Assembly (NCBI GenBank): GCA_037893225.1
Contig: JAZGUH010000228.1
Location: forward strand, 1 to 64,000
From: Hippasteria phrygiana
Lineage: Eukaryota > Echinodermata > Asteroidea > Valvatida > Goniasteridae
DNA: 64,000 bases
Direction of reading: 5' to 3'
The position numbers were made by a program, and so were the translations under genes. Position 1 is the stretch's first letter. Each line of letters starts with the position of its first letter. This document shows positions 6,503 to 54,500 of this stretch, piece after piece. The notes under the pieces are model-generated. The model was not told the origin of the DNA and ran no database searches. It was given only the letters and a program-made list of their open reading frames with translations.

Positions 6503-9500
6503 CTGAAAAACAGAAGGCAAAAAGAAGAGATAAACAATAATGATAATACTATTTATAAAGCACCATATATCCAAACAAAACCAAGTTTATAAAATACCAA
6601 GGCTACACGATATATTTAAACAAATTACAGTGGAACGCCGATTTTTCAACATGGCGTCCGTTCTTTTCAACAGCATCCTATTGCGATTGTAATTGAAGGT
6701 TTTAGGCAATACGTGTACCACATTTTCCCCCAAATTTTGCTGCTTGGCAATGTAATATTCTGCTCCACTTTTTAATTTAATTTTTAAATAACTGTTTATC
6801 AAACAAATTGTGTGAAGTGTATTTTAAAAGTTGATTATTTCTAAGGTTTACTTGTAAAAATAATGTATGACTCAAGTAATACTCATTTTGAGTTGAGAAT
6901 AAAAAAGAAATGGATAATAAAATTGACACAAGAAATGAGGAAAAGGGAGAGACTAGCCGGAACATAAAGCTGCGTTTGTTCGGTAAGTTTTGTACACAAG
7001 ATTTGGGAGCCAAGGATGGTGTTCGTTATAGCCGAATGTTTGGTATAGCGGTGTTCGACCGACTGACCGGCCGAACTGTCCTTAGCTGTAAGCAAGGTAA
7101 ATAAAAAAATTGCCCCAAAATACCAATATAACAAAATGCATCCGAAATATTAATGGAAAGTTTATTACCCCAAGTTTATGATAAAAACCACAGTAATGTT
7201 CATTATGTACACAGATTGGTCATATTTTCCCTTTGATTGTGGGTTACTTTTTTGGGGGACACCCTTTAAATCATATGTTCTTTAAATTGTGTGTAATATG
7301 AACATTTATATGATACATGTTCTTGGCATATTTTCAGGTGTGAATCAGGGTTGGTGAATTCCTCAACCCATTCTGTCTGGCTGTTATTAACCCTCCCTCT
7401 CTCAGGGCCAAAACGGAGCCAACTACCCTATATATCAAACCTATCAAGTGACAGGTTGAAACACACACAAACTGTGAGAGTTGGTGGGTAGATTTTTTGA
7501 TAGGCTGTGATAGTTATAACTATAGGAGCGTTAATGAGGTGCTTGTGCAGCCAAGTGTAATGCAAACAATGGATTGAATATGCACAGGAATGTGCATACT
7601 ACCAGCCAGGTGGTCTTTTTCAAACTGCGGCTATGGCCAGCGTCCATTTTTTAAGAGGTTAAAAGAAAATCTGTCGGGCCTCACCACTTTCGTCCACCCA
7701 TCGGATCATGACGCAGTCGGAGTGATAAACCTCGGTCAGCGACATCTTCGCCTCTCTGCCTCCACTGATGTCCTTCAGCGATTCCTCGGTCAGGATGAAG
7801 GGCTTTCCTTGCAGCTTGCCCGGCAGGACACGCGAGATGTCCTTGCGCAGCTCCTGTAGACTGCCAGCCTTGTTGGCCTGGACAGTACAGAGTTTCTGCA
7901 GGGTGGAGTCTGGGTTCTTGACCATGACGAACATCTCCATGCGGTCCTCGATCACTAGCACAGAGAACGGTAAGAGCATTTATAGTTGTGGTCGAAGGTT
8001 AAGTGCACTCGGAAATTGTTCCCATACTTGTTCCTGGACCTGTTGCATTTGTGGCAATTTTCCAATAGTAAATTCTCAGAATTTCAATAAAATGTTTCAG
8101 AGGGAACAAAGAAAACTGTCGGGATTTCAACCTGCGACCTCCGGAATACCGCATCGGCACTCTACCAAAAGAGCTTCTCTTGCCCTATGTTGGTGGTCTC
8201 TCAAATTGTCAATGTCTTTGTTCTGAGGGAGCAGGTTCAAATCCCACTCCTGCTCGGGAGAGCACCACCACCATAGGGCAAGATAGCTCAGTTGGGAGAG
8301 CGCCGGGTACGGTATTCCGGAGGTCGCAGGTTCAAATCCCACTCCTGCCAGTTTACTTTGTTCACTTTAACAATTCTTTGTAATTATCTAGTCAATTTCC
8401 CTCGTGGTTTGTTTAATGATATAATAGAATGTTTCAATAGAGTACCGAAGTGATGACGTCAATGCAATGTTTGGAACCAGAATACCTTTGTTATTTTGTG
8501 TCAATGTGTTTGCAGGACTGGCTGTTAAAAAAAAAAGAACAGTCAAAATCTCCATTTGTTTGGAGCCAGTTGTCGTGCCAACTGACGTCAAACTTCGGTA
8601 CTCTATAGTCCTTCCTGTATAATGTATAATCAGTTGGTTTGGTTCCCTTCTGTTAGATGAAATTGGAATTTGTTTGCCGGACTGAGGTGCATGTAAACGT
8701 TTGACAGCAACTGCTCCTGGATACCAACTTTCTGAAAAGTTTTCCCGAACGTTTGATTTGGTTTATTATTGTATACTGTTGCAGAAGTGCTTGGATCGAC
8801 TATACAATTAAACTTTTAACTATGTAATTCTTATCCAAGGTCTGGAGGTTTTGGTCTTGGACCACCATGTCGCAGTCTCGGGTCTTGAATACAGAGGTGG
8901 TGGGGTTGGCCACATTTTAGGTTGCCAGCCCCACCACCCTCACGGTTTTCCTGGGCCCAAATCTTCAATAGATGCCAAATAAATTATCCCAGTTTTCAGA
9001 CCTATAGAGTACTACCGAAGTGATGATGTCAATGCAATGCTTGGAACCAGAATACTTTTGTTATTTTGTGTCAATGTGTTTGCATGACTGGCTGTTAACA
9101 AAGGAACAGTCGAAATCTGCATTTGTTTGGAGCCAGTTGTACCAACTGATGTCACACTATGGTACTCTATAGACCCAGGCAGGGTAACTTTCATTGTTGG
9201 TGAGACCAAACCACCTCCCTGTAGTGAGTTAATAGCAGTTTTGAAAATGAATTAAATTGCTGCAAACAGCTGATGGACTGAATTAACCTGAAATATACAT
9301 ATCAACATAGCTGGCCTAACATTTCAAACTAATAAGCAAGTTCTTTCTCAAAGGCAAATGATAGTGTACAAGAAACAAACATGTACCAATGCCATTTGCC
9401 TTTGAGAAAGAACTTGCTAAACCCCTTGCGTATGGATGACGCCAAATGGTGCAAAAAAACCAAACAGTGGCACCAGGCCGGATGACGCCATTTGCCGCTA

Positions 9501-12500
9501 TTTGTGCAGTTTCAATCCATTGTTGGATTATTGTGTATGTTATTACACTTGACTGCACAAGCACATTGTGTCCGTTTCACTTGGCTGCAAAGGCCGGCAC
9601 GACACCCCGGCGCCTCCTGTAAATAACCGTACTCAAGGGGTCAAGTTTAAAACTTTGAACCAGTTAATTTTGTTCATTTAATAGCAGTTGTGTTTAGCCT
9701 AGAACAACTTTTTCCAGTATTGTCTGTCCGTCGGGACAGGGCAAAAGAGAAAACATCTCTGTTCTAATTTACTTCATCCCCAGACGCAAACATTCCATCT
9801 TCTGACTGATTACGCGGTGCCCGATGCTGCATTGGATTCGAATCGGCCAGCCGACCCCGGCAAGCTCGGTGGTCGAGTGGTCAAGACGTCTGCACTAGTA
9901 AGCAGGAAGTCATTAGCCTTTTAGAGGTATGGCGGACACAATAGGAGGGCGCTATTTGATTTGGGTAAAACCTTTGTATTTATACCCAAATCAAATAGCG
10001 CCCTCCTATTGTGTCCGCCATACCTCTAAAAGGCTAATGGGTTCGAATCCCGCCTGAGTAAGCCTGTGAATTTGTTCACACAGGCTCTCGGAAAGAACTG
10101 AGCATACAGTGCTTCATACATTACGTCAGGATAGGGCAAAAAGAGAAAACATCTCTGTTCTAATTGACATCATCCTCGACGCAAACATTCCATCTTCTCA
10201 CATCCCTACCCGTTTCCTCCTGGCCTGTGGCCTCGGTGAAGCCTGGTGGCAGGGCAGTGGCCTGAATCTCTGGGGTACGTCTGGGGGAGTTAGCCTGACT
10301 CCTCAGGGCACTCAGACTGTTTAAGCTTTAATGGATCAAATAAGAAGAAAACAGTTTTAATCTGAAAGTTCAAGTTTGAAGGCATGTAATTCCTGTGCAT
10401 ATAAACACCACAATAGAACAACTCTTGTAAAATTGTGGAATCATATGCACTGTCAGCACATAGGAAGAAAAATAGAGAGATATAACCATTAAAAAAGAAA
10501 CATACAAGATCTTTTTTTTTGCATACAACAAAACAATGAGTACCCAGAAAAAATTAAATGGAATGGAAAAACTGAAAAACGAGCAAGGACACTGCTTTTC
10601 AACCCTGGCTTCGAACTGATCAAATGCTGTAAGGTAAAAGATTTGTGAGTAGCACCGTGTAGCAACTCTCTCTTTTGTGAATTTGTAGGGTTCTGAAAAG
10701 AACCAGGGCGAGTTTCCCCCCGGTTCTGAAAAGAACCGGGGCGAGTTTCCCCCCAGTTCTGAAAAGAACCCTACAAACATTGCTACCGCAAATCTTTGTC
10801 TTATTGCCGTCTTCACCATCCAAACCTTCAAATCTTAACTGATCAAATATTTTCTAATATGTGGTACAGCAGTTCTTTAAGGGTGCTTCCATTTGTTGCT
10901 CAAAACTAGTCAACAACCTGGGCCCTCCTGAATGTCATCCACTGGTACTTAAGCCCTGGGCACCAGCAAGAGTCCGGCAGTCTCCTGATGATGAACAGAG
11001 CATACTGTTCGAAACGTCAAGTTAAAACAACCAGTTTTTCTCGTAACCACACAACTCCAAAGAGATACTGTTCCAAGTCAGAAGTCCGAGTGTGAACAAG
11101 ATTTATCTAATTTTTACTCTAGTCTCAGTAAGATTTAACAAAATAAACCCAGTGTGAACACGACTTTGGACACTTACTGTACTTCCTCCAGGTCCCCATC
11201 ATCTCCTTCAATCACCATCGTTGGGGCTTTGTGCAAGGTTGGGAAACTGCTGAGTTGTACTCCCTCCTCGGTCAGTGGTACGTTGTCAGAAACGGTAAAC
11301 GTTTTACCTTTTGGTAAAAAGATCAGACCAAATCTTGTTCAATATTTTTTCAGTTACAATGTTTAAAATGGCTCAAATGGGTAACTCCCTTCCCAAGTTT
11401 CTGCTTTTCACATTATTTTCTGGACTGAAAATATGTCCAAAAATTTGTTTGGGAAAAAAATGTTAAACAAATGTATGACTCCCCCTCTGCTAAATCGTGT
11501 GGTGTGCTGCCTGTAACCAAGGAAAAAGAATAGGCTTGGGTGACAATTTTGCAGTAAACTCCGACTGGGAGCAGGAGCAGGAGCAAGAATCGCAATTCCA
11601 TTCATAATTGACTCCAATCATCATGCACAATGGCATGAGTGCTGCATCCTTTGAAGACAGTGTTGTGATTGATTTCATGGACAATACAACTGATTCTGTG
11701 AAGTGCTACATGCAATCTTTTCAGGGAATTGGTTCCTCAAACCCTGGCTTGGGCTCGGGTTTCAGCTTCGCGTAATTTTATGTCCCCAGATTTGGCAAGA
11801 TCTTGGATACTGTTTTTGCTACATGTATATCAAAGTCTGATGTTTTAATCCGAAGCCAGAGTCTGTTAATATATTTACGTATTCAAGGCTTCAGATTGGC
11901 AATGGGACTGGGGAATAGCTGGAGATGAAGCCCAAGCCGAAGCCAGGTTTGAGAAATGCCCTGAATACTGTTTTGGAGTCCGCGGTGCCTTGAATCTACC
12001 CCAAGGAAGCAGGAATTGGCTACCCCAAGGAGTCGACTCCTCACTAAAATGGAATTGCGAATTCCGATCGCAATGTTTGAGTTGAGTCGACTCCTGTACG
12101 GAATCACCCAAGCCTTCAACAGGGGCGACTGTCTCGGTTTCAAGGCCATGGTTACGCCTCCCGTCTGCAATTCCGTAATTAGGGTTAAGGGACTTTCCTA
12201 CAATTACAATGAAAAAAATCTGATTTTTTTTACCTCGTTTTTCAATCTTTATTCTAAACGCATACTTGGTTGGACCTTATATTTGTAAGAAATAAGGAAT
12301 AAGGACAAATGCAGTTTTCGCACATTTTCTCTTGAATAAACAAAGTATTTTTGAAAAAATACATTTTCACTATTTTTGTTATTGTAAGCAGAAACATCGT
12401 TGTAATCCAATAACATTCCCAGAAAAAAACAATATTTAGAAGCAATATCCTTAATATCCACTTAATTGGTCAAATGTCACAAGACAGACTTTTTAACAGT

Positions 12501-15500
12501 TGGTAATCACAGAAATTCATTGAATTGCTGCTTTAACCCTCCTGTTCTCAGGGCCAAAATCGACCCAGCTGCTGTACAGATCAAAACCTAACAAACTGTC
12601 AGAGTTGTGCTATGGTTGCCGAGCTACACTTTAAAAACAATATACTTCGTTATGAGCTTCGTCAAACAATCCACAAGGGAATCCACAGCGGGATTCGAAC
12701 CTGCGACCTCTAGGTTACCGTACCGGCGCTCTACCAACTGAGCTATCTTGCCCTCTATGTTGGCGGTCTCCCAAATTGTTAGTATCTTTGTTCGGGTGAG
12801 CTTGTTAATGATTTTGTCTAATTAGTCGTAAAAGGTAAAACTTGTAAAAAAAAAAAGTGTTTCGCAAGTGATAAACAGTAAAAATAGGATGAAAAATTAA
12901 AAAATTGTGATTTTTTTTCTTTAAAAAAAGATGCTAATTGTCGAAAGGTAACTTAACCCTAACCCTGCCAGACGTAGCACAGTGCATCTGTGCTGATAGC
13001 TCCACGTTGATGGACTCCTCCACACAAGTCAATGTGACAAAGTATGCAATCTGATGCGTCTGGCAGGGTCCTAGCAAACATGCCCTGGAGAGTTAGGGTT
13101 TAATAAAAAAAAACTTTCGGGTGGAGAAAGATTATGACTGAGATCTCACCTTTCCCGCCAAAGAGCTTGTATCCAAGGAGCAGAAGGATCGCAATGATGG
13201 CTACAGAGAAGATGACAATTAGTGCAATAGCCCATCCAGGGAGACTGTTGGACGTCACCTGTAACAGGCAAAATAGGAAACAAAACCCCAAGAGAAATAA
13301 AACCCGTTTCTGGTGCTGACCGAAGAAAAACCCATTTAAGCCACCAAAAGACAAACGTGTTAATAGTCAAGCAGAAAGAATATTAGTTTAAAACAACTCT
13401 AAGCCAAGCAAAGAAAAAACTTGGTTTTGCAGAACTGATTGAATGTAATAGAAAACCAATTATAAGCATGAAGGGCCGGTTGCACAGGCCACGATAGCAA
13501 TGACGAAAACAAAAATGGTGAGAATGAACGCCATCGATTGGTAGAATTGTCGCGCGTGTAATACGCATGCGCCCCATCTACCAAAAGAGAATTTAGAGTT
13601 TATTCGCATCGTTTTTTTCCGTCTTAGCCCGTACGAACAGTCCTAAAAAAGAAATATATAAAATGTTTTAGTGGGGAGGTGAGTTGGTCTCACCATAATT
13701 CCTTCCTCCGTGGTCTCACTAACAGTAGAACCTCCTGGGTCTATAGGTCTGATAATTGGGATAATTTCTTTCATGTCTATTGAAGATTTATCCTCTATTT
13801 AGATCTGTACCCAGGAAATCCGTAAGGGTGGTAGGGCAGGCAAACTAAAATGTGGCAAACCCCACCACCTCTGTTGTAGCCCTTTACCTAGAGTGGCTTT
13901 TAGCCTTGTATTGGCAACTTCTATATAAAAAAAACCCAAAACCAAAACAACCTCACTGAATAATTAATTATGGATTTCTGGGCACGAGAGAATGCCATCA
14001 TTCTATATTAATGCAGAGTAAAATATCTGTGCGCAATTAACGTTGTACTCTTGTATGCTGTTAATTAAATTAAACATGCGCAAAGTGAGCACTCTGCTAT
14101 CTGTATTCTGCTCAAATTGTGACGGTTCATGCTAAAACCCAAACTAAATGATAAAAAGTGGTAATCTGTCTTAACCCTATTTCCCCTTCTTGAATATTCC
14201 ATAACTTGAGAAATACTTCACCTATAGACCCCTTTGAGGGCTTATGTTAAAGTTCTTTAACTCCTTTAACCCTGCGAATTGCCATGGTACTGTTTTGTAC
14301 AGTCCGTTGTGCGTTAATTTTTTATTACTCCGTCATTTTTTCAGCAAAAATCTGAAACTGTTTAAGTTCTATGTTCAAACATTGTATTAATAAATAATTT
14401 ATATCCCTTAAATTTCTTTTTAGATTTTTTGAAGGAAAAAACCCTTGCGGAGAACCCCGTGTATAATCAGGGGTGAGATTTGAGGAAAATAAAAAAAATC
14501 CCCAAAACATTCAGAGGCATTGATTTGTATGGCATTGCTGAAAAATGCTTAAGAAAAACCTGCATTTTCTACCAAGGATACAGTTCAAATTGCCAAAAAT
14601 AGGGTCATTAGAATAGACAGAAGACCGTTTCAGGTTGCAGAGGTCATTTTGGAATGATGAAAACAATTTGAGGACCACAAAAAAAATCTTCAGGAAAAAT
14701 CTGGAGAAAACACACCTTTTGTAGAATAATTGATGTAATAGCAAACTGTTTTTCTCATATATAAAAAAGAAACCAAAAACAAAACTTACATCGACTGGTC
14801 CGTAATCCTTCCCATCCACTAACAGGTACTTGTCAGCCGTCAAAGTCTGACCGTCGAAAACCAGGTTGAGGTGTCCTGCTTGGATATCAGCCCACAGGGC
14901 CTTCACTCCTGCATCAACGTCGCCACCCTTCATGTCAAAGGAGGCCAGAATCGACCCTGGGTACGATGGGAGACAGGGATGTAGTAAGTTACACAGAAAG
15001 ATGGTCGTGCTGCCAACAAGTTCAACTTTCATTTCCACACAAAATGTGGACGGCTCTTTCCCTACATGGTCTCGATGGATCATCAGAAGCGACTTCAAAA
15101 ATTTGGTGAAAATGTCGGAGAACTGCCTTCATATTTTCTTGATAAAAGTGTGAAGGAATTTGTAAGTAAGGAATTTGCTCATCAGATTATATATTAAAAT
15201 ATAGATTTGTATATTAATATAAAGTGATTCATTAATTGATTAATCTGTTGGCAGATTGAATTAAATTTAAATAAACTGAATTGAACTGCTTTGAATTGAC
15301 TGAACTAAATTGAGTTGAATCAAATCAAATTGAACTGATTTGACTTCAATTGAATTTGTAAAGTCCATGTAAAACCAAAATCAGAATCATCAAGTAAAAA
15401 CTGCATCTTAGCCAAGAGTCACGTGATGTTTATTGCATATAGATGCTCTCATCTGATTAGCCAGTAAATGTGCTGACCAGGAGCTCTATGCAAGTAATAT

Positions 15501-18500
15501 GTGTATAATATCCTAGTATGCACCTTTCTCAATCGTAACCTTGCTGAATTTAACACCGTCGTACTTGGAGCCTAAATAGTCCAGCAACTGACTGCCGAGA
15601 AGCTCTTCCTTCCCAGCAGCCACCTGGTCATAGTCGGCCTGGAAACGCATCGTGATCCTGCTGAACTGCAACACCACCACATCGAAGGGTTCAGAGCTGA
15701 TGCTCTCGAGGACCGAGGTGTTCGGGTAGGTAATCTTGAAGTCCAGGACAACCCCCGAGGCTGGGGCGGCGACAGTGACATCGGTGAAGTTGGCCCAGCT
15801 GCCGTCGAACGGCACGGTCAGGTTACCGGAGAGTTGGACTTTGTTGGCGTTTGGGGTCACAGGACTCACTGAGACAGTTAGTTGCCAAGGGTTGGAAGGG
15901 GATCCAAGTTGTGGAAGCATTTCGCCCTATATACGTGCAACGCAATAAGATGGAGACTAGATCAGTTAGGTTAGTGTCTTGTAGTGTTGGGCGACGAGTC
16001 GGCAGGTTTAAAGTCGCGAAGCTTTTGGCGGATTAATTTTGGAAATTGGTTTGACACCAACATTATTGATAACAAAAATGCATGTGTCTGGCAAACCAAC
16101 TTGTATCAAGGTAAACAATAACCCTAACCCTGCTAAATGCAACAGAATGCACCAATGGTAAAAAGGTGTTGCACTTAGCAGTCAAGGCATGTCTCCTGGT
16201 CTGATGCATTCTTTTAGATTTAGTATTATACATGTATAAGCCTCCAGCAACAAGGCTGGTACAGATGAGTTCACTGCACAGTGCAACATTGCATTTGGCA
16301 GGGTTCTTATTTCAGCTGTGTTGCATTCTGTTGCATTTGGCAGGGTGCTCAGGGAATACCTCGTGGGGGTTAGGGATAATAAAAAATCATATGAGATTGT
16401 GAGTGAACAGCAACTATCAAACTATTCCAAAATTCTAATAAATAAAATGATTCTGGACCCTTTTCTTTTGTATTTTTGGAAGGTATTTGACATATTTACG
16501 TCATAATTATATAGGCATTTTGAAACCTGGAAACAAGTCGACCTTGTCAATAGTGGGAGTCGTAGTCGCTACTAGCGTTACTAGTCGCGATGTCAACTGA
16601 GTCGCCCAACGCTAGTGTTATAGGACTTTTCCCACCTTTGACGTAAACTGTGGCAAGGTTTAGGGAGGGGGCAACTTTCCACCAGGTAGCATTTTGATTT
16701 GTTTTCATCAAATCTTAACTGAGTCAATCAAGAGTTAATCACAAGTTGCATCACAAGTTGCATCACAAGTCAAAACACAAGCCTTTCACAAGTTCATTTG
16801 AACAGATTGTGACATGACTTGTGATGACTTGTTTAATGTCGTGGCCTCTCATGGTCTAGTACCGGACTCAAGATCATTAGCCTTTTAGAGGTATGGCGGA
16901 CACAATAGGAGAGGGCGCTATTTGATTTGGGTATACCTTTTGTGAAACCACAGGAAATTTCAAAGGTGAAGATTAGGCATGATCTATGGATTGTACTATG
17001 GATTGTACTTTAACTCAAAACAATATCTGATTCTGACTTTCACTGGAATTTGTGGTTTCACAAAAGGTATACCCAAATCAAATAGCGCCCTCCTATTGTG
17101 TCCGCCATACCTCTAAAAGGCTAATGGTGGTACTACAGATTGTGGGTTAGAGTTCAGCAGGGGTCACGGTGCATGTGTCCTTGAGCAAGACACTTTGTCA
17201 CAACTTGCTATTCTCCGCTCGGGACTAAATAGGTTACCTGTGAGGGCAGTGATGGTTATGTGTTTGATTAGCCCACATGCGCTTAACTTGCAGCCGGGGC
17301 TGTATACTCCCCAGGGAGCTGAGATTTCAGGAATGATTAATAGGCCTGATGAGCAGGGGTAATAATGTAGAGCCTCGGGTACTATGATCATGGTGGATAA
17401 GTGCGGTTTACAAATGTGACCTGTTCCCACGAAATGGGGATCAAGTAGCAAAATTTGACAATCAAGATTATGGTATTTCCTGAAAGTGCAGGTTAAAAGC
17501 TTTAATTTGATATATTGTGTGTTGTGGTATCTCGTTCCTAGCCCCTAATACAACCTCTTAAAATTATCAGAGTCTTGACCCCTTGTTTTGAGAAAATGAA
17601 GCTCAAAGTTTGTGATCTGTGCACACTTGAACCAGAGTTCAAAAAAAGAAATCAGCCCCCAAGAATATTTCATGAAGAGATTCAGTTTAAAATCTTTGGG
17701 ACATGATAGAATAGGGTTTTTCAAATATACATTTGTTAAAATCCCAAAATTGACTTTTCAGTGAAAAAAATGATTGTTTCTGCTTGTAGCTCAGAAAGCC
17801 ATAGTGCGACTTTATTTGTGCTGTCACGTCACAAATCTACTTTACTGTTTTCAGTATGAAAGCAGAAACTAATATCATCATAGAACCAAATAAACTCCTC
17901 AAAAGTAGTTCGTAAAATTTGTTTCACTCATTTATATCTCGGTTATTTGAGACCCGTTTGTATCGTGTTGCATATCAGTGAAAGGTTCGTCATTCCCCTT
18001 CACAACGACACCACATTTGTAACAATCACTTGCTTCACAGCTGGGTACCTCTCCTGTGAATACAGGTGGGTCTCAAACAGATTGTGCCAAATTTGCCATT
18101 ATCTGTGCTCAACAGAACAACCAACTGTGTCAGTAACCAGGAATGAAGAGATATATTGGCAATTTGACACTGTATTCATTACACAAACAACAGTCACTAA
18201 CATCAATAGCGGGTGGAAGAACCATACGCAGCCACAACAGCCTGGCACCTCCTCCTCATGCTGCTCACCAGTCTTCTTGGGGTGTTGTCTTCTTGGGACG
18301 CCCACTACTGGGTCTGTCCTTGACATCACCAGTTTCACGTAATGTTGCTTTCAATATGGAGATGGTACTATAGCTAGCGCTCACTCCAAAAATTGCCGCA
18401 ACTTGGTTCTGGATGGGGAACACCAGCTTAATTGAGCTTCCCTATAGCACCAGCCTTCTCCACGTTGGATAATCTTGGCATGATGATGCTTGGATTAGAC

Positions 18501-21500
18501 ACCAGCACCAAAGACTCACTGTGCCTTCATCCATGTTCAACCACCTGTAAAACTGCTAATCCTGTCCTGGCACTTACTCATTCAAAACAAATCCAATCCC
18601 TGAACAACTCAAAACAACAGAATCAATATGCTAAAGCACAGTGCACAGATAATGGCACATTTGGCATATTCTGTTTGAGACCCACCTGTATTCACAGAAG
18701 AGGTACCCAGCCGTGAAGCAAGTGATTGTTACAAATGTGGTGTCGTTGTGAAGGGGAATGACGAACCTTTCACTGATATGCAACACGATACAAACAGGTC
18801 TCAAATAACCGAGATTTAAGTAAGTGCAAAAAGATTTTCGAACTTTTTTCGAGGAGTTTAGAACCCCACAAAAAAGATAGACACTAGAGAATTTGCATTG
18901 GTCTTACCGATGCATCCACAACATAAATTGAAGGTTGTTGATCAAAGGCCTCCCCCTCGGCTGCCCCGCCGGGCTGGGTCAGGAAGATCAGGTGATCAGG
19001 GGTGCGGTATTCAACCCCTACGCCTTTGTTGGAGTTCTCTTTCTCCTCCTCTTCCCGCATCACTTCATCATATCTGACAAGACCAAAAGGAAAATTAACA
19101 AAGAAAACTGGCAGGAGCGGGATTCGAACCTGCGACCTCCGGAATACCGTACCGGCTATTTTGTGCCGAAAATATCTAATTTTCTTTTCAATTTTTGGAG
19201 GAATATTTCCATGGGTCTGGAAACATGGACTACCAAACTGTAGGCACAGATGATGCCAAGAAAATTTATGCCAGTAAAACAGGTTGTTCTTTTTAAGCCA
19301 GGATTTTTAGGCATGGAGCTCACGTGCCGTCCCTGAGCTGGGGAACCTTCTAGGATCTAATTCCTTATACAAATCTTGTGGGAAATAATTGAGCAAATGT
19401 ATTTCTATAGGACTGAAAATCCATGTTAACCCCTTGCGTACGGATGACACCATATTGCGTCCCAAAAAAAGGAAGTGCCACCAGGCCGGATGACGCCATT
19501 GGCCGCCTTTTGTGCAGTTTCAATCCATCGTTGGATTATTGTTTATGGCTGCCAGAACCGCTGCAACACCCCAACGTCTCCCGTAAAATACCATGCCCAA
19601 GGGGTTAAGTAGGTGTTGTTGATGTTTGAAAAACATCACACAATATAAAGACGATACTTCCCAGGAAGCTTAAATGGTCTGAGGAATACTTTACTGGCCT
19701 GATGAGCAGGGGTAACAATTGGGCACCTTAAGTTGGTGGATCTATGCACTTTATAAATTCATAACTTGAATTGTGTTTGGACCCTCAAACCATGCCCACT
19801 TACAACTTAAATGGGCGTGGTTTATGTTAGAACAATGCCACTTACAAAGAGGGCACTCCACAGGGAGCGGAGATGGTCGACGGAATACTTTAAAGGTAGT
19901 ACAGTGGAACGCCGCTATAGCGAACATCGCAGGGATCCACAGATTTTGTTCGGTATAGCGATCGTTCGGTATAGCGATCGTTCGGTATAGCGATCGTTCG
20001 GTATAGCAAATCTTTTTTAGCCGCCGGTTACTTAAGGACGACTTTAAACATGTGCCAGCCATTGAATTATGTAATTACATGTTCATACTTTCTAAGCTTA
20101 CCAAATTCTAAAGCAACAGTTGGCTTTTCCCTTCTATTCCTTGGGGAAATAATAGCCACCTGTCACTCTTCAACATAAAGCTGCAGCCGTTTGGGAATTA
20201 CAAACAGCCCAAATAGCCGGTACATGTTTTTAATCCGTTGCCTTTTTTTTTTTTTTACAACAATGTTCGGTAAGTTTTGTACACAAAATCTGGGAGCCAA
20301 GGATAATAATAATAATAATACAAGCATTTGTAAAGCGCCATCTATCTATGTAGACATATTCCGAGGCGCTTGAAGAAAAGAAACTGTCCAGAACTCTACA
20401 AATAATTAAATATACTTGTACATGTATGTATACTTGAAACAAAACCAGCAATCTAATTATAAGTTGAGTTAAACAGGAATGTTTTAAGAAGGCATTTGAA
20501 GGTATGTAAAGATTGACAGCTACGAATTTCCTGAGGCAAAGAGTTCCATAGAGTGGGCGCCGTAACTGAGAAGGCATAGTCCCCATACGATGTTCTAGTT
20601 CTTGGTGTCACAAGAAGATGTTTGTCAGATGACCTTAGGTGGCGATTAGGGGAATACTGGGTGAAGAGATCCTGCAGATATGTTGGTGCGCTGTCATTGA
20701 GGGCTTTCCGGGTAAGTAGGATTATTTTGAAGGCAACCCTCTGTTTGACTGGAAGATTTCTCAGGACTGGAGTAATGTGGTCAAATTTCCGTGTTCGGGA
20801 TAAGACATGAGCCGAACAAGTTTGCACATGAGAGTGTTGGTGATTCCAAACAGAAGTGAGTTGCCATTATCCAACCTTGATGTCACGAGAGCATGGATAA
20901 GGATGGCAGCCGACAAGGATGGTGTTCGGTACAGCCGAATGTTCGGTATAGGGGCGTTCCACTGTATACAACATTTGCTTTTGATGTATCTTCCAGAAAT
21001 GGATGGTAGTGGAGTTTAGTATTTTATAGCAAATACTGTAATGATGACCAGTTTAATGTTCTGTGTGCATAGATGCTGGGAAAACGGAGAAAGAATGCTG
21101 TTCTTGTAGTCTGGTTCCCTAACCATACTTTAGACAAAACGGAGCAATTTATAGATGCCAGGGAGTTATCAGGTCGGGGAACTAGACAAGCTGGCTTGCA
21201 CCCATTCACACGGACGTGTAACCAATTGGCAAACAAAATGTGGACTAACTAAAGTTAGTAAATTGGGGGCAGTACTTGGAAATTTCCTGGAAATTGATAC
21301 AAAAATCCCACTTTTGTTGAAAATGACAGCACACAAGGTGCCATGATTTCTCAGGATACCCGAGACTATTATTTACTTACAGTCAAGTAAGGTATTTCAT
21401 AATTATTTAGCAGTTTTTTTGTTGTTGATGTTTGCAAATGTTGTATATTACCTTCAAGGGCCTGATAAGCAGGAATAATAATAATAAGACGTCATCTTCA

Positions 21501-42500: not shown

Positions 42501-45500
42501 AAAAAGCAAAGCAATAGATGGAAGCACTTGACAAAAACACATTCTTTTTCCAACTTTATTCACTAAATCAAAGATTTTTGTTATGAAATAGAATAATATA
42601 GGTATCAAAGATGCAAAAAATTCCCTCCCTTCAAAATCACTTGTTTGAAGAATTTTTCACCCTCTTCACATTAAACTGCCCATAACTCGTAAAAGCATAC
42701 AGCGACTTATGTGCCCTTTTTGCAGAGCGGGTCACAAATGCAAACAACAGGCACCAGAGTGGTCCTCTTCATTGCACTTGGCGCCCCTCTTTCGTGTGAA
42801 TGAAAGCTTTGTTTGAAAAAAAGCTCCATCTATTCATTACACTCCCATTCAAGAAGAATATAGCTGAAACATGAATGGATGGAGTATGTGCAGGAATGTG
42901 CCTGTAGATGTCAACCGGCCAAGTTCGGCTGCACCAGTATGGCTATGGCCGTCACCAGGATTCAATAGGGTAAGCTTGGTACTCACAAGGAGCTATAGTG
43001 ACATCATCATTGTCCACAGGCAGGGTGCCGCTGTCCCATGCTGACACGTTGGACCAAAGCGTGAATTTGTCCGGGCGGAACACGTCTGGGGGTGGCCCAG
43101 GGACGGGTGGAATGCAGTCTTTGTAGAAACAGGAGTAGATGTTGGGGTGGATGTCACGATCAACGGGGGCAGACTCATCCTTACCAGACACTGAGCAGCG
43201 AGAAAAATAATACTACAAATTTTTAGCCGGCTTTAACATTTCAAACTTTATAAGCAAGTTCTTTCTCAAAGGCAAATGACCAGTGTGTTTTTTTTATTGA
43301 AATTCATTGACTAATGAAGCCGTTCAGTACTCATCGTTCTCCAGTACAACATTCTTTGTTCAGTCATGCATAAATCACTCAAGCAGAAAAAGACTGACTG
43401 CTTGTTGCATTTTCAACGAAATATTCCCCCCCCCAAAAGAAGAGGAAAATGTTGAAAATTACTCCTTTAGATGGCATAAAAATTTTCTCTCCTGGCCTAC
43501 TTTATCAAGACGGAAACCCGAGAGTGGTCAAGTAGCAGGGATATCCCTCCTATTTTACCAAATTAAAAAGGATCAAAGTGCCAAAAGCTGTAGTGCAAAA
43601 ACTACCAATACGACTTTTTTGATCGATTTCGCAAATGCTTTGCACTGTCAGGACCGTGCAATGGATGCACTTTTCAGCAGAAAAAAAAACTGACTGCTTG
43701 GCGAATAGTTTTATTTCAACCAAACATTTGAAGAAAAAAAAAAAAAAAAAAATTGAAAATTACTCCTTTATGTAAAGATGCAACGATGTTTAGTCACCCA
43801 CCTGCAACTGAATCCGGCATAAGTAGGTGCTTGTACTCAAACATAGTGAGTACAACAGAGGTACCATTTCTTATCAATCAAATATACTCAGTCGATTGAT
43901 TTTGCTCGATGCAATTAAACTCCTCATACAAGTGACTTGATCGCAGGAGGGTCAAGTTTGACCAGTCTATATGCCCAGTCAGGATTCCCACAGACATTTT
44001 AAATTCCATGACTTTCCCATGACTTTCCAGGGAAAAAAAAATCACGGTTTTCCCATGACCAATTCTGAAATGATTTAAGACCACTTTTCCCAAAGTGGAA
44101 AAAACTGTGTGTGCAAGTCTGCTTTGTGTGGACATCTTTTGTTTGCAAGTCCACACAATGAATGTAATACATTCATTTGTACACTCACATTATTGCACAT
44201 ACACCCAAGGTAACATACAGTTCACATACATATCATGCAGCGACATCCCGCACACATGCGTATGTATTTAATGTCAAGATATCTGCTTTATTTTGTCATA
44301 TTGATACAGAATTCCTGTATCAATGCTTGACACCTTCTACAATTTGTTGCCGTAATTTGGGGTTTTAAATTGCACTTTGTAATTTTGATTATTCCTCATA
44401 AAGATATTCTTAATGCAGGAAATATTTTTATTTTTTTTAATTCCACTATGATTTACACAAATTATTTGTGAAATGCAGGAAAAAAGGTACCAAATCGAAC
44501 TCACCCATATAAGTCAGTGTTCGATTGGCCTCATCGAAGTGCAAGTCGCCATTTTGGTTACCGTCATACGTTGGGATACTCTCCGTTGAATTCTTAAATT
44601 GACCATTTATGGCAAAGCGGTCGGGTGTCTGCGTGAATTGGTGATTGATCAGCACGAAGTCGCCCTCCCCATAGCCATAGAACGTTGCGTCATAAGTGAT
44701 GTTGGTGATCTGACCCTCGTCCTGGAAGGCGAAATTGTAGTTGTCGCCATCGATAAGCGTAACCATCCAGCCCTCGGAGTGCGTGATACGCATCTTCATA
44801 AACGGTGCAGCGGTTGTGCCGTAGGCGTTGGTGAACAGAGCCGCTTTGCCCAGTAAGGAGGAGGGCAAGGGGTTATTAAAGGACAAGCGGTGAAGACTGA
44901 CCGAGGCATCGCACGATGAACCCGGCACCTTGCCAATGCTGTATTGATCTTCTTGCCGGCATGCACCACCTGGAAGATTTGGGTTACTTGGGAGGACGAT
45001 ACCGTTAGGTGTACCCGTCAGCGTCCCATCCAAGTCTTCGAACCAACACTCATGCTCCCATTGAAAAGATGCTCTGTTGGGAGAATTGTAGAACTCTACA
45101 TTCTTGAATCGGACGGAATAACCCCCCTGGTAGCTTCTGCATTTGGAACAGTACGACAGCGTGGCGCATCGATCTTGGTCAAAGTTGATGAACTTTGCTC
45201 CGTCAACGGTGAGCCCCTCCAACTGCGGGCCTTGGATGCCAGATACTGTACACTTGTCCGCTTTCTTATCCTTAGAGATCTCACTGTGGCCGACCACCAC
45301 GACGTCTTTGACAAGCGCGCCATCCTCACCCCATGGGGCATTGATCATTTGGTATTCCACTCCTGACATGTCTGCGTCTGAGACCACAAAGTTGTGGAAC
45401 TGGACGGCGCCCACAGCTACAGCCTCTGCACCCCGCTCCGTCTCCCAGGCATACAGGGAATAAAACTTGGCTGGTTCGTCCTCCCAGGAATTGCAGCCCC

Positions 45501-48500
45501 CACCCTTTTTAGGGTGATACACGGGAAAGACCCACAGGCCATACCACCCCTGAGCATGAGCAGAATTGTTTCTGAACTCACCCAGAGGGACATTGCGAGG
45601 GCAGATAGACTTTGTAAAGGACGGGCCGCCGGGGTGGGTCGGCATGTTGTACCAGAAGCCGAAATGCGAGCCGCCAGCCGCCGCATTGTGCCGGACGATG
45701 TTGTCAGGATTGGTGACCCAGAAGGTGGCCGGGGTGATGTCCACGTTCAGCAAGCTGCTGCTGGGACGGACGAAGACGCCCAGGTTGTACTGGATGATGT
45801 TGCCCGTCTCGATGCCGTCCTCCATGAAGAAGGCGTGGCCCATGATGTTGTAGGCCACGTTGTGCTCCACGAGGAGATTATGCACCCCGTGGATGGTGAC
45901 AGCGCGGTTGAAGGTGCTGTGGATGCCGCACCCTCGTACGTAGGACCCGGTTACATCACCGCTCATATGGAAATGGATTGGGTAGCGGCCGAGACGGAAT
46001 GACTGGCCTGCGTGAGTGACCTCCACATACTCGATACGACCCGTGATGAGGTGCTCGTCTTTATTCGCTGCAAAGAACATGATCTGGGAACCAAACTGAT
46101 CGCTGCCCGTTTCTTCACCCAACTTCCCGAGGAAGCACGTCTGGGTAGCAAATTGGCCTGGAGAGAAACGATAAAACATCTGAGCATACATTCCATTGAC
46201 TGCACAAATTCTTCAGTGGTAAAGATTCAATCTGGAAAAAACCTAGTGGCCATTTCAAGAGAGGCGGTCCCTGAACCATTGCTCTCGGAGTCTACCAGAC
46301 CAATGCCTGGACTCATCCACTGGTCCAGTGCACATTTTGAGCTCCAATTGTGCGCCGGTAAGGCCCCGTTCTCACTTGAACGATTTTCTACGCGAATGCC
46401 GTGCGACTACCAAATCGCACAGGGCGTACGGGAGTCGCACGGAAGTCTGTTGATGATTCGCACAGGTTGTAGGGGTGTCTTGTGTAATTTGGACGGGTCG
46501 CATGCCCGTGCGAGTTTTTTCAAATGTTGAACATTTCCATACGGCTGTCGCACGGTTCGCATTGGTTCGCATTGGTCGCATGGGGGTCGCACGGCAGTCG
46601 CACGGCGGTCTGATAGTTCGCACGGGAGTCTAAAGAGAGTCGCACAGCTCAGCCATGCGACTCCCAGCAGACCCCGTGCGACTCCCGTGCGACATCCATC
46701 AGACTGCCGTGCAACTGCCGTGCAACCTGTGCGAATCTCATGAGAGCCTGGTGCGACTGCCATCAGACTGCTGTACAAGCTGTAGGAATCTCATGTGCGG
46801 TGCGACCCCATGCGAGCGCGGTGCTGCTGCCGTCTAACCTGGGCGGATCTCACCAACAAACATATAAAAAGCGGCCTCAGCGGCCTGAAAATCATTCGCC
46901 ACCTGATGTTCAAGCTGTCCACATCAAGATGGAAGACAACCAGAGAAGTCTGAGAAACAGGGAAATTTGTACGAAAATCGCACGGCTGTACAATTTGTTT
47001 AGTCGCACCGCAGTTGTACAAATAATCGTTCAAGTGAGAACGGGGCCTAATGAAAGAAATTACAGTAAGCGATCACTAGTTGTGTGCACATTCAGTTAGA
47101 AACATAGCAATGGAGTCATCTCACTAACCTGTGTCGAAGTCCTTTGGGCAGGCCTCGTACTCTTCGATCCATTCCTCCTGGACTGATCCACGGACTTTGA
47201 CATTACGCGTCAGCAGCCCCACCTCGGCGTGCATTTCCAGTGTAATGTCATCTATTGTCTGCGTGATGCCCCAGTGGTCGTACTCTAGAGCTGGAGTAAA
47301 TGTAAGCTCAAGGCTATCTGCCGACACATCTAAAGAAAGAAAAAACACAGAAACCCTTTATTTCGCAAACAAAATCAATTCACTTCACTTCAATTCGGAA
47401 CTACACTTATTTCCACATCATATTAACCCTCCTATGATTATAACTATCGCAGCCTATCAAAAACCCTACCCACCAACTCTCACAGTTTGTGTGTGTTTCA
47501 ACCTGTCACTTGATAGGTTTTGATATATAGGGTAGCTGGCTCCATTTTGGCCTTGAGAACAGGAAGTTAATATTGAAAATATAATAAAAATAAAAAAACT
47601 GTAATCCCCTCTCCCCTTTTCCACAATGCAGAGGTGAGACGGGCAACATTTTTAAAATCCACGAAATCCACAAAAAATCCACAAGAAAATCCACGGGAAC
47701 CCCAGATCATCATATAGTTTGTATTTGCCTATAAAAAAGTCTGCATCCTCTGAAATCCTGACAAAAAATCCTGACAAATTTCACCCCTGACAATGGAAAG
47801 TGACTAGGTAATTCTTAATGAATTTGCAAAGTGAACAAAGAGAACTGGCACGAGTTGGGATTTGAACCTGCGACCTCCGGCGCTCTGAGCTATCTTGCCC
47901 TATGTTGGCGGTCTCCCAAATTGTCAGTGTCTTTTGTTCGAGGGGGTGCCAGTCAGCAGTCATTTAAAATTGGGGTTGAGTTCATGAAGCAATTGAGACG
48001 ATCTAATTAGAAATTATCTAACAAACCACAAGGGAAACTGACTAGGTAAATTTAAATGACTTTTCAAGAAAAAAAAAACATTGCAGGACCCAGTTAGGAA
48101 CAAAATTGTTAGACACAATGCAAAATGTATGCTTTATACTCCAACAGTATGAACGAGCCAGCACTTATCAATTTGCCGTCGAGTACAGGGGTCAATGTCA
48201 TGAAACTGCTTAGCACAGAAAGTTGTTTAGCGTGAACAGTTTTTCTTGGTACCAACCAAATTTCCATGCGATGTATATTGCTTGTGACCGGTATTCAGCT
48301 GTTGTTTGCTTTGCATAAAAGTCGCACAGAGTTTTGGCTCACAGCCTGTTTTTACCAAGCAATACTTTTCACACTGTCCAAAATCTCGGGGTTGGACCTG
48401 GATCGAACCCCGACATTTTTTCAACCCTTTTCCCACTTGTAAATGTCAACCTTGCGCGAACCCGGGTAGCATGTTCTAGGCGGATCAAAATCAACCTAGG

Positions 48501-51500
48501 TCAAGACCAGGGTTGAAAATCTCAACCCGGACTGAAATTAGATTTTTCGGCATGAACCGTGTCGGAAATGATAATGGGCCAAACCAGGTTGAATGCTACA
48601 CAGTTCGCATAGCGGCCGGTCCGCAAAAAGAACAGTGTGAACGTTGAATCTCTCCGATCCGTGTCAAAAACAACCTGGGCTGAACCGGGGCAGATCTGGG
48701 GGCAGATCCGGGTTAGTTTCAACAGAGAAATTATCCCAATTTTCAGACCTATAGACCAAGGCGAGGTAACTTCCACCGTTGGTGAGAACAAACTTTTGTT
48801 CAAGCAAAACAAAAAGTGTTTTTACAATATATCAATGGGAGTGTTGGAGTTTTCTTGAAAACTGACCCTATATTTGGTACCCAATGGAGACATGAACACA
48901 ATAGGAACAAAGGGACTGAATAGGTCTCCACTAGGCAATTCTATGGGTTAGGTTGTCTCCACAAGGAATTTTGTGTACAAACTCTATGGGGGTTTGCTTA
49001 AGTACAGGGACAAAGGGGAGAACAATGTCATGTCTCCACAGGGATGCAGAAACGGGAATGCGTGTACCTGTCAGTGTGACCTTTTCATTCTCGTACTGGC
49101 TGTGACGATGTCCTGTCGACGCGATGACAACCTCATCCCCAGCCTTCCAAGTCACTTCCTGCTCAAGTTTCATCTTGGTAGACCCCTTGGCGGCGGTCTC
49201 AACTAAGCGGGTCCACGTGATTGGGATAGGCATCCCTAAAGGGCATTAAAATGAAAGATAATCAATCAAGAATAGCACGCGTCTTCCCTACCAGCCCAAA
49301 TTGCAGACGACCCTAACCTGGTGTGCAGTAGATCATTGTAAGCGTGCTTGTCGCGCTTGCATTGCTCTCCTGGCCAATCAGAAAGCCTGTTTAAGGAATT
49401 GAGGATGCCCTGGTCGCCATCGACCGGCTGCCACGACAGAGGACATTAAAATGAAATATAATCAATCAAACAAACAAGAAATGGTACGTAACATCAATAT
49501 CTTTTTGATACCACTGTTAGTTTTGAACGAGTGTCTCATAACTTGGAAGGACTGGAAGGTTTCAACATGTGTTCAAATCGGAACACATGCTACGAATTTT
49601 TATTTGGCAACACCACCCCTCCACCCCAACTACAACCAATATTAATCCCATCCAGTCACCACCCCAACCCCACCCCAGCTTAGCCATCACCCCACATCAT
49701 CACCCCATCACCCAACCCACCCCCACCCCATTGGCCAACCCCATCATTCCACCCCAGCCATCACCCCACTCAGCCATCACCCCACTCACCCCCAACCCCA
49801 CTCACCCCAACCCCATCACCCCAACCCATCACCCCACCCCATCGACCCAACCCATCATCCCACCCCATCGACCCACTCACCCCCACCCCATCGACCCACC
49901 CCAGCCATCACCCCACTCACCCCCACCCCATCATCCCACCCGATCGACCCACCCCAGCCATCACCCCACTCACCCCCACCCCATCATCCCGCCCCATTGA
50001 CCAACCCCATCATCCCACCTAAGCCATCACCCCACTCACGCCCATTCCACTCACCCCGCCCCATCGACCCACCCCATCATCCCACCCCAACCCCCAACTC
50101 AGCCATCTCCCACCCCATCATCCCACCCCATCATCCCACCCCTACCATCATTCCCACTATTCAAATCAAATTAAAATCATATACATGTACATGCATGTAC
50201 GAAATATATTCATACATGTACAATACATACTGGGATGTAACAATTAAAAACTTTAAACAATTTTAATAAAAAATTCCTCACTTAAAATTATAAAATTTAC
50301 TGTAATACAATGAGTCTAATAAACTGCATGTTTGGAATAAACTACCTAGAAGCAAAAACTTTAACATAATCTGAATGCAGACGGACGGACGGACGGACGG
50401 ACGGAAATTGGTATTACATAGGCTCGCATCTGCTTCGCAGCTATCCCAAAAACTAGTGTGGTCGGCAGAAATGAAAAAAGAATCTGGGAAGAGCCTGGGT
50501 AGGGTCAGCATTCCAGAACAGGAAATTGGTGTCCTGGGATGTGATTTTCTTGTCAAAACGAAGAGGGCGATTAGGCAAATAATGTTCTTTTAATGTGGGT
50601 CAAAAATCACATCCAGAGCCCGGAATCACAATGAGGTTTAAGCTGTCAAACCCAGAAGTCACGATGTACTCTTTGTCAAGGTGGACAACAGTTTCAAGAC
50701 TACATATGTGATTTTGGAGAAAAAAAATTAAGATGTAATTTTTGACACCCATTGTCGAAATGGAATAGAAAGTCACATCCAAGTGGTTTACAGCGGCATG
50801 TGGCAGCCCCATGTCCAACAAACTAAGCCAAGCCCGGACTCGTTTTATCAAATACTGTTTACCGTGTAGGTCCAAGGTCCCATTCCGTACGGCCAGGGCC
50901 TTGGCGCCAAACAACGGGAGCTCGACGGAGCGGACGTGGCCGTGCATGACGATGCTAGCTTCGTGCTTGAAAGGTTCTTCCTCCGTACCGATCTGGAGAC
51001 GCCCGCCCCCAACAATCAGGATGTTCTGGGCATGCAGCTCAATGTCGGCCTCATCAAAGATGACTGTACCACCTACCAAACCGAGCAACAAAATGGATAA
51101 TTATTGGATAATTATTGGATACTGTCCTTGGAAAGTCCACTGTACAAAACCCAAACCTTTTGTTTATGACTTCTAACTAGCGCCCACCCGAACAAAAATA
51201 CTGACAATTTGGGAGACCGCCAACATACATGTAGGGCAAGATAGCTCAGTTGGTAGAGCGCCGGTACGGTAACCCGGAGGTCGCAGGTTCGAATCCCACT
51301 CCTGCCAGTTTCTTTATTCACTTTGAAAATGCAGTTAAAAATACATTCAAATCAGTAAAAACACATTCACATTCTCTCATACATTCTCCAAAAAAGGCAA
51401 TACACACCATTGATGAAAAGCATCGACAAGACGGGCGTTGTGACGTCCAACAGCAGAGTCTGTTCTGGTGGGACGCGGACAAACTGGCCCTCTGTTGGTG

Positions 51501-54500
51501 GGTCCTGGTTTCCCCAGGTGTAGCGGGACGACCACACGTCGATGTAGTAGAAATCAGCATTGTCCTGCAGAGACAATGAAAATGTGGAGAGGTGTACAAA
51601 AATGAGGCTTTCAAGCAGACCCAGGTGAAAAAGTAGGAGAATAGTAGACATTTAAAAAACACAGGACAAAAGATGGCCGTCATTTATAAACAAATTCTGG
51701 CAACCGTTGGGGTTTCTCTGTTCAAAGACGCATTAAAAATGAAAGAGACATGTTGGACAAGAGAACTGAACATATTTGAAGTGTTTTTTAGTATGTTTGT
51801 AGCACCATATCAGCAAAAAAAACAACAACAAAAAACTTCCGACTCGCAAGTATTTATTTTCCGATTGACTGATTGACATTTTTGTTTTTTATACATAATA
51901 TTTCTGTGGTAATTTTTTTTTTAAATCCAGGCGGCCTCTAAAAAGGTAGCGGGCAAGGACGTGAAACATGTTTTTTTCTATTTCGCTTTAGGGGTAACAT
52001 GTAATTAAAATTGGAAAAAATTCTATATATGGTTCTGGAACAAGTACGACTACATACACTGTAAAAAATAAGGATTTTGATGTCCTTTTGTGTACTAATT
52101 CACTAAGATAAGGACAAAAAATAATGAGGCTTGCCACCGCCCATCAATATTAACCCTTTCCTGTGACATCAGTACAACATAACGCTCCTTGCAAAATTTT
52201 CTAACGAAAGCTTCTGCTTGCCACCTATCTTTATTTGATTGAGTACAGAAGCGCATTGTAAATTTGGTTGGAAAAGAGTTGGGCTCATCCTTACAATCAC
52301 TCTCTCAGCGGAGATCTGTTGCTACTCTTAAGCCGTGTCCGCACTGGACTCTGTTTTTGGAAGGTATGATTTTACAGAGAGACGATGGTAAAATGAAAAA
52401 TGGTCAAACATGACTACTGTCTGCACTTGGACTTTCGACACGGGAAAATTTTACCGAGACCGTGGTAGAAGTAACCGAGCTGTCAATATAACGACTCATG
52501 AGGGCGCTTTGCGTGATCTTTCTACATTGACGCGATTGACCCAAATCATGCGTGCCTTTTCATTTTTCTGGCTGATGTGTACACATAGTAGGCCTACATC
52601 TTTAGCACCAATCAAACTTCCGACTGTATCAATAATAAAATCTGCCATGATTGCGACCAAAAGAGGAACGATGCACTGGAATTTGGAAACTTGCCACGTG
52701 CACCGCACCGCGGTGAAACAATGCAAAGCGCATGCATGGTGTCCCTCGTGCTCGGGCCGGATGTACGCTTTCCTGAGCCACCTTTACCGACTCGCACTGT
52801 CCGCACTGGACTTATCGTCTCGGGAAAAGTTACTTGGTCAGATTTCCTGGGCAGCAGTTGTCCGGTAGAAGTAACCGCTGGACTCAGGAAAAGTAACTGA
52901 GAGGATGAATTCCTATCTTTTTGTAGCTCCGTACATCGAGTGGCTTTATAGCCTTGTTCGGGGCAAACTTACATCGAAAAAAACCAACCAAAAAACTGCC
53001 TGGGCACTTTTAACATCTTATGTCCAGCTGTTATTGATGGGGGGCTGGTATGCCAAGAACGGGCTGTGCAGTCAAGTGTAAACGCAAACAACAGGCAGCA
53101 CACTGAATAGATGGTCTTATTCATCGCACTTGGTGCCCCCCTTTCGTGCGAATGAAAGCTTTGTTTGGAAAAGCTCCATTTATTCATTACACTCCCATTC
53201 AAGAACAACATGAATGGATTGAGTATGCACAGGAATGTGCGTATAGATGGCAGCCAGGTGCTCTTTTTAACAACCCAACTAACCCGTGTAGCAATGCCAT
53301 TGGATCCGACTTCCACCCTGACTTTGGTCATTTCTGGGCGTCCGTGGGCTTCGGTCGTGCACTCTATCGTGGACTCTGACTGTGTTGTGATGACACACTC
53401 TTTGCCGCCAACTGTTACCATATTTCCATTCGCCCTAGACAAGTCAAACCACATGCAAAACTAATTTTACCATTTCACATGATTACTCGGAAGAACACCG
53501 TTTCCTGTTTCTTCAACATTGGTTCTTGGGCCAGGCTATGTGTTATAGTGCTGAAGCCTAGGTTAGTCTGAGGCACACAAACTCAGATTTAAGGCCAGTT
53601 TATAGTCGGTCGCGTGATGAAAATCGCCCGACTCTGATGGTCGCTAGGCCTTTTTTGTGCAGTTTATAGTCGTCACGCGACGTTTGTAAACACACGCGCA
53701 GCATACGCGCAGCATACGCGCAGCGTGTCTGGAATTTGAATGCGACGTGTGACGAACACGCATCGCCACTGCTGAACGTAAAATTATTTTAGCTGCGATA
53801 ATTATTAATTATCAGAGTTAGCAGCATTTTTTTGATGTGCGATTAATGTCTGTCCCAGCTGTTTTAATAACAATAAATATTAAAATGCATAAATATAATA
53901 TAGGACGTTTTCGATGATTATTGATAGTGATATTTATTTTTTATGCTGTGTGCCATATTTACATATTCATCGTTTCTCACCGATCAGGCAATTCTGTTGG
54001 CCCATTGAAAAAAGTGAGGTCAGCGACCATGTCAAAGTTTAATTGATTGAACTCTGTAGTGACGTCACCAGCGTCTTTCGGCGACTAGTCGCTGGTGCTT
54101 CCATGTCAACTATAAACCCTGCGTGAGAGGATCGCGCGTAAATTTTTTGTCGCGGCGACCATCGCGCGACCGACTATAAACCAGCCTTTATACATCTTTT
54201 TCTGCTGTTTTTGCCATTCCAATTTTTTTTCTTTGGGAGGGGGATTAGATTATGAAAGTACAGGAGTAGAATTTTGGCCCAGTATCTCTTGTTTTCAAGT
54301 ACAGAGGTATAAACAACTTGATTGGGGAGCTTTTTAGTGACTGGTCTGCATATAAGTGGGTTTCGGTAGAACCGTTTCGATCTTAAAAAGTAACCTGCTA
54401 TTTTATTTTACAGAAAATTTTGCGTCCATTATTTTCCCCGAATATCTTTGGTCTGGACCTTTCAAAATTGAGTCTTAAAAGGCAATACACAACATTTGCA

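What the first reader, a model, noticed from the sequence alone, without database searches (positions are those of the whole stretch)
7363..53266. Every copy of one TTAA MITE family sits just downstream of a splice donor, same orientation
Seven copies (7,363; 24,663; 25,203; 27,584; 35,912; 42,232; 53,014) all have the CCTCTTGAATACGG end facing the exon, at about 26, 44, 20, 24, 20, 17 and 17 nt from the exon end. I found no copy elsewhere in 64 kb. Ordinary MITE insertion should not cluster this way. Possible causes: intron creation by the element (introner-like), targeting of transcribed or unwound DNA at donors, or a role in splicing that keeps copies there.
Basis: partly seen in the sequence, partly recalled or inferred. 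Interest (0 to 1): 0.88.

Follow-up and report, generated by a model that had tools for sequence, protein, structure and literature searches.

The report
Transposon copies parked at splice donors
In one 64-kb stretch of DNA, likely from a starfish, all seven copies found of a small non-coding transposon family lie in the same direction just inside seven of the 30 modelled introns of a single gene, right after the splice donor, which points to a likely insertion machinery that reads where introns begin rather than to elements that made the introns.

Summary
Seven copies lie in sense, 11-40 nt after a donor, in 7 of 30 introns of a fibrocystin-L (PKHD1L1)-like gene whose 31-exon model is one open frame backed by starfish orthologs. 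Uniform placement gives 3e-11 for 7 of 7; other repeats are that close in 3 of 69 loci. The 45-nt cut-off was set after seeing the copies. Corrections: one copy lost its donor-facing end, one is a two-headed hybrid, one is a diverged relative, and a sister family has three antisense copies 568-1954 nt from donors. Intron creation is not supported: at 6 of 7 junctions proteins align gap-free at the junction out to vertebrates (one exception), and introns 19 and 20 still have 124 and 218 nt without the element. A splicing role is not supported: the donor-facing end is the most diverged part. Most likely is oriented insertion of a TTAA, piggyBac-like MITE guided by real 5' splice sites in existing introns. 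The deciding genome-wide map could not be made: the genome tool did not complete in ten tries.

The parts
53012..53272 (-). MITE copy c53, intron 4, 11 nt after the donor (exon ends at 53284); donor-facing end lost
42230..42972 (-). MITE copy c42, intron 10, 14 nt after the donor (exon ends at 42987); split by a nested insert about 42325-42736
35915..36202 (-). MITE copy c36, intron 14, 20 nt after the donor (exon ends at 36223)
27584..27902 (-). MITE copy c27, intron 18, 22 nt after the donor (exon ends at 27925)
25204..25502 (-). MITE copy c25, intron 19, 19 nt after the donor (exon ends at 25522); TTAA intact on both sides
24664..24856 (-). MITE copy c24, intron 20, 40 nt after the donor (exon ends at 24897); hybrid with the same kind of end on both sides
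7364..7662 (-). MITE copy c7, diverged relative with an interior like the sister family, intron 30, 22 nt after the donor (exon ends at 7685)
21910..22186 (+). sister family B copy, antisense to the gene, 587 nt after the donor of intron 22
19428..19607 (+). sister family B copy, antisense to the gene, 1954 nt after the donor of intron 23
9420..9642 (+). sister family B copy, antisense to the gene, 568 nt after the donor of intron 29
6363..59745 (-). fibrocystin-L (PKHD1L1)-like gene, 31 modelled exons, the 5' part lies outside the window

Best explanation
These are seven copies of a short non-coding TTAA transposon family (MITE), all lying sense-wise 11-40 nt after the donors of seven introns of one gene, and they were likely inserted into introns that likely already existed, by a likely piggyBac-like machinery that would be guided by the real 5' splice site or the exon end beside it. 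Shown: the copies, their ends, direction and distance; the gene model; gap-free protein alignment at 6 of 7 junctions (one exception); no copy at 27 TTAA sites beside donor-like GT motifs that are not donors. Inferred: that the machinery is piggyBac-like (TTAA target, ends CCCCTTG/CCTCTTG); and that it was tethered to something asymmetric at a transcribed donor, such as nascent RNA with U1 snRNP, or polymerase and exon chromatin, so that one end always faces the exon, as Tn7-like elements do at their target (recalled). The sister family would lack, or have lost, that preference.
For: 7 of 7 copies within 45 nt of a donor, 2.9e-11 under uniform placement, against 3 of 69 other repeat loci (Fisher 5.5e-8). 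7 of 7 in sense and 7 of 7 on the donor side; 0 copies at the 10 TTAA sites within 45 nt of acceptors. 0 of 27 TTAA sites after non-donor donor-like GTs are occupied, while only two free TTAA sites remain within 45 nt of the 30 donors. Flanks of the copies are unrelated, so these are separate insertions. TTAA is intact on both sides of c25 and on one side of c7, c36 and c42. c7, from a different branch, sits the same way.
Against: One gene in one window. Three related sister copies are antisense and distal, so the rule is not general to the wider group. TTAA is not legible at c24 and c53 and is altered at c27, c36 and c42 on the donor side; counting only legible donor-side sites (c25, c7: 2 of 4 against 0 of 27) the occupancy contrast drops to p 0.013. 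Distances are not fixed (11-40 nt). No transposase and no empty site was seen. In mammals a donor-side bias of elements within 20 bp of exons also arises by selection (PMC3088655).
Confidence: 0.5

Rival explanations
1. Chromatin-edge targeting without direction: the element goes into open DNA at both edges of exon-bound nucleosomes, and selection then removes insertions beside acceptors and in the antisense direction.
For: Introner sites show reduced predicted nucleosome occupancy in 104 of 132 genomes (PMC9860276, passages). Elements within 20 bp of exons are biased to donors in mammals (PMC3088655). Insertions at acceptors would break branch point and pyrimidine tract.
Against: It does not by itself give 7 of 7 sense: the consensus has no strong donor/acceptor pair on either strand and no AATAAA or ATTAAA. 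Other repeats show no excess at exon edges (3 of 69 at donors).
Confidence: 0.2
2. Selective retention: insertions were random, but copies beside donors in sense were kept because they help splicing or expression of the gene.
For: Same side and direction in all seven. The whole c27 element folds better than its shuffles (z -2.68), though inverted ends alone may do that.
Against: The donor-facing blocks are the most diverged (0.176, 0.229, 0.126 against 0.037-0.122 in later full blocks). Folds of the donor regions are ordinary. Donors with a copy are of usual strength. By arithmetic on 3.1%, seven survivors would imply some 220 insertions into this gene with nearly all lost.
Confidence: 0.17
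3. Introner: the elements created these introns.
For: One family in many introns in one direction, with inverted ends and TTAA; some introners recruit both splice sites from the insertion site (PMC9860276, section 7); four weak acceptor-like AGs lie near the far end of the sense consensus.
Against: Gap-free proteins at 6 of 7 junctions, one exception; 105-3138 nt of non-element intron on the acceptor side; introns 19 and 20 keep 124 and 218 nt without the element; phases 0, 1 and 2 all occur; 7 extra residues beside intron 18 in one sea cucumber protein hint at an old intron there.
Confidence: 0.08
4. A quirk of this one gene or a chance pattern picked out because it looked odd.
For: Only one gene is seen, and the cut-off was set after the fact.
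Against: 2.9e-11 for place before direction is counted leaves room for a very large number of windows read.
Confidence: 0.05

Closest known systems
Pokey / mPok (piggyBac superfamily, Daphnia; PMC3849761, passages)
   Same: TTAA target, MITE derivatives, repeated insertion at one narrow kind of site; its non-TTAA insertions all have one orientation
   Different: The site is one place in 28S rDNA, with weak sequence preference elsewhere; here the sites share a position relative to exons, and no shared flanking sequence was found
Introners (PMC9860276, section 7 and passages)
   Same: One DNA-transposon family in many introns in one direction; both splice sites may come from the insertion site
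   Different: Introners make the intron; here introns look older and mostly consist of other sequence
CMITE, coral MITEs (PMC2872659, abstract and section 10)
   Same: TTAA duplications, ends such as CCCCTCAGTGTCCG, likely piggyBac-driven
   Different: About 100 bp; no placement at donors is described in the parts seen
Mammalian intronic TEs near exons (PMC3088655, passages)
   Same: Elements within 20 bp of exons lean to the donor side
   Different: There elements near exons are depleted, and LINE and LTR elements near exons lean to antisense; here 7 of 7 are near exons and sense
Tn7-like transposons (recalled)
   Same: One end faces the target at a short, nearly set distance
   Different: Bacterial, guided by protein or RNA with fixed spacing; works alike at most, not a relative

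Membership tests
MITE | short, multi-copy, no coding capacity for a transposase | tested here: met
   193-319 bp apart from the nested insert in c42, seven copies
MITE | inverted ends and short target duplication | tested here: met
   ends CCCCTTGYGTCCG / CCTCTTGAATACGG; TTAA intact on both sides of c25, decayed in others
piggyBac superfamily | TTAA target and ends beginning CCY | tested here: met
   comparison with CMITE ends; other TTAA superfamilies (Kolobok) are not excluded
piggyBac superfamily | DDD transposase partner with the same ends | not testable with these tools
   genome search unanswered
Introner | many similar introns in one direction | tested here: met
   7 of 7 sense
Introner | element ends at or next to both splice sites | tested here: not met
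   105-3138 nt of other sequence before the acceptor
Introner | intron absent from orthologs without the element | not testable with these tools
   no other echinoderm genome at hand; protein alignments give indirect evidence only
Site-selective DNA transposon (Pokey-like) | strong excess at one kind of site | tested here: met
   7 of 7 at donors in this window; genome-wide not testable
Site-selective DNA transposon (Pokey-like) | shared sequence around the target | tested here: not met
   no similarity between flanks of different copies beyond chance-level short matches

The most novel reading that the evidence does not exclude
A cut-and-paste transposon that homes to 5' splice sites: its machinery docks on the transcribed donor and inserts, always with the same end toward the exon, some 15-25 bp into the intron.
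Probability: 0.35. Interest if true: 0.92.

Novelty: new variant of a known kind. Interest (0 to 1): 0.68.

Why it matters
In mammals, transposons beside exons are depleted, and LINE and LTR elements there lean to antisense (PMC3088655); here every copy found is beside an exon and sense. A DNA transposon that reads splice donors would link transposition to splicing or to exon chromatin, would make the start of introns a safe harbour, and would offer a route by which ordinary MITEs could become introners. It can be tested with an assembled genome of the source species and its relatives.

Tried and rejected
Segmental duplication of one intron: rejected, flanks of 300 nt are unrelated, apart from the stretch that c24 and c25 share because they are neighbours. 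A bare donor-like DNA motif as target: of 223 non-donor GT sites with score 1.5 or more, 27 have a TTAA at +8 to +44 and 0 of 27 hold a copy. Scarcity of TTAA elsewhere: 296 intronic TTAA sites, 6 within 45 nt of a donor, four of them in or beside copies. A wrong gene model: 31 exons give one open frame and match orthologs. RNA structure at the donor: seven folds, z -1.74 to +0.45. Exonisation explaining direction: best sense donor and best antisense acceptor of the consensus score below all real ones. Intron age from annotation artefacts in the 120 listed ortholog proteins: 22 of 331 insertions fall at a junction, 18 of them at intron 12, where our protein is short; one hint at intron 18. Copies in other records: patterns gave 0 matches in viral contigs and genome contigs; a translated piece of the element gave no protein with E<=10. 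Literature: the listings showed no title or abstract start that describes a DNA transposon aimed at splice donors; they are capped lists, and most subscription papers are not held.

Full report
What the window is. The minus strand carries a fibrocystin-L (PKHD1L1)-like gene. A simple exon finder trained on eye-picked open frames, corrected with orthologs and by hand at three exons, gives 31 exons and 30 introns between 59745 and 6363; the joined exons have 0 stops in one frame, against 95 and 134 in the other two. The best listed ortholog is from the starfish Acanthaster planci (68% identity over 99%), then Asterias amurensis (61% over 88%), then other echinoderms, so the source is likely a starfish; the species is not known.

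The copies. Seven copies are found by blastn and by profile, all in the sense direction of the gene. They lie in introns 4, 10, 14, 18, 19, 20 and 30, at 11, 14, 20, 22, 19, 40 and 22 nt from the donor (good to about 4 nt). Six form one family, 7-14% different from its consensus; the seventh (c7, 7 kb) is far more diverged and its interior matches the family B profile. c53 has lost its donor-facing end, so its original distance is unknown. c24 carries the same kind of end on both sides. c42 is split by a nested insert. TTAA is intact on both sides of c25; on the donor side it is intact in c7, reads TTAC in c42, TTAT in c27 and TTGA in c36, and is not legible in c24 and c53.

The sister family. 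Three further elements (9420-9642, 19428-19607, 21910-22186) have ends like CCCCTTGCGTAYGG; TTAA is intact on both sides of two of the three, not of the 9.4 kb one. The family A profile matches one of the three (E 2.5e-4), and the family B profile matches three of the seven A copies (c24, c7, c25; E 4e-6, 3e-5, 9e-4) in 64 kb. All three are antisense and 568, 1954 and 587 nt from their donors. Over the ten elements, sense goes with donor-proximal (7 of 7) and antisense with distal (3 of 3); Fisher 0.008. So not every relative follows the rule.

Chance. On intron lengths with the elements removed, 3.1% of intron sequence lies within 45 nt of a donor: 7 of 7 is 2.9e-11, 6 of 6 without c53 is 9.4e-10. 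Of 69 other merged repeat loci in the gene region (several families, some split, the B copies included), 3 lie within 45 nt of a donor, about what chance gives, and these three did not match each other; Fisher 5.5e-8. The cut-off was set after seeing the copies. Of 296 intronic TTAA sites, 10 are within 45 nt of an acceptor and none holds a copy; 6 are within 45 nt of a donor, four in or beside copies and two free. Of 27 TTAA sites 8-44 nt after a donor-like GT that is not a donor, none holds a copy. If all seven occupied sites were once TTAA, 7 of 9 donor sites are occupied against 0 of 27, p 4e-6; counting only the two whose donor-side TTAA is legible at the element, 2 of 4, p 0.013.

Did the elements make the introns? 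I aligned 12 of the 120 listed orthologs (echinoderms, acorn worm, amphioxus, vertebrates). In 6 of 7 junctions they are gap-free at the junction itself, with one exception: 7 extra residues within 2 residues of intron 18 in one sea cucumber protein, which may be intron sequence left in a gene model. Small gaps lie a few residues away at introns 4, 10, 14 and 19. The junction of intron 30 can be aligned in five echinoderm proteins only. Introns 19 and 20 without their element are 124 and 218 nt long, and on the acceptor side the seven introns hold 105 to 3138 nt outside the element. An insertion into an exon that recruited these splice sites would have removed many codons. The sense consensus does hold four weak acceptor-like AGs in its last 70 nt and no good donor, which is noted for the introner case. 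None of the seven sites is seen empty, so age remains inferred.

Do they help splicing? The part nearest the donor is the least conserved: 22 of 125, 32 of 140 and 18 of 143 sites differ from consensus in the first three 25-nt blocks; later full blocks range from 0.037 to 0.122, and the last 9 nt are at 0.171. The first three blocks also lead the other full blocks when CpG, TG and CA sites are left out. Donors with a copy span the range of the 30 donors. RNA folds of the seven donor regions are ordinary; the whole c27 element folds better than shuffles (z -2.68). So there is no sign of constraint at the donor side.

Mechanism. What is left is preference at insertion. Direction and the donor-only side argue for something asymmetric: a tether to the transcribed 5' splice site, or to polymerase and chromatin at the exon end. 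A chromatin-edge preference followed by purging is the main rival. Pokey shows that a piggyBac element can evolve a narrow target, and that its non-TTAA insertions have one orientation (PMC3849761, passages). Coral CMITEs share TTAA and similar ends (PMC2872659, abstract and section 10). Introners are described in PMC9860276 (section 7 and passages). In mammalian introns elements are depleted beside exons, those within 20 bp lean to the donor side, and LINE and LTR elements near exons lean to antisense (PMC3088655, passages).

Limits. One gene in one window. No other record of the element was found by exact patterns in the collections open here, which hold viruses and prokaryotes.

Noticed in passing
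6363-6502 and 7685-7954, minus strand: The likely starfish fibrocystin-L has a cytoplasmic tail that ends in a cysteine-rich exon (83% identical to Acanthaster); a sea cucumber relative carries the precomputed zf-MYND domain PF01753. The tail aligns in five echinoderm proteins and not in the acorn worm, amphioxus and four vertebrate proteins compared.
   Followed up: partly
44505-46157, minus strand: One 1653-nt exon covers the first PbH1 region, while the corresponding stretch of the second module is split by several introns, two of them with MITE-free and MITE-bearing donors side by side.
   Followed up: no
306-2078: Arrays of a 12-nt unit (ACGACGCGACGC-like) with long inverted arms beside the gene.
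   Followed up: no
8277-8350, 23665-23732, 38630-38708, 38864-38936, 51235-51307: Five tRNA-like Rfam matches within longer repeats, likely tRNA-derived SINEs.
   Followed up: no
56629-57131: 207-nt inverted repeat, 99% complementary, 89 nt between the arms.
   Followed up: no
42325-42736 and 56492-57373: The insert nested in copy c42 shares stretches of 130-140 nt (95-97%) with the inverted strand at 56.5-57.4 kb, so a second mobile family entered the MITE later.
   Followed up: no
31443-32154, plus strand: Open frames that look like a fragment of a non-LTR reverse transcriptase (label from memory).
   Followed up: no
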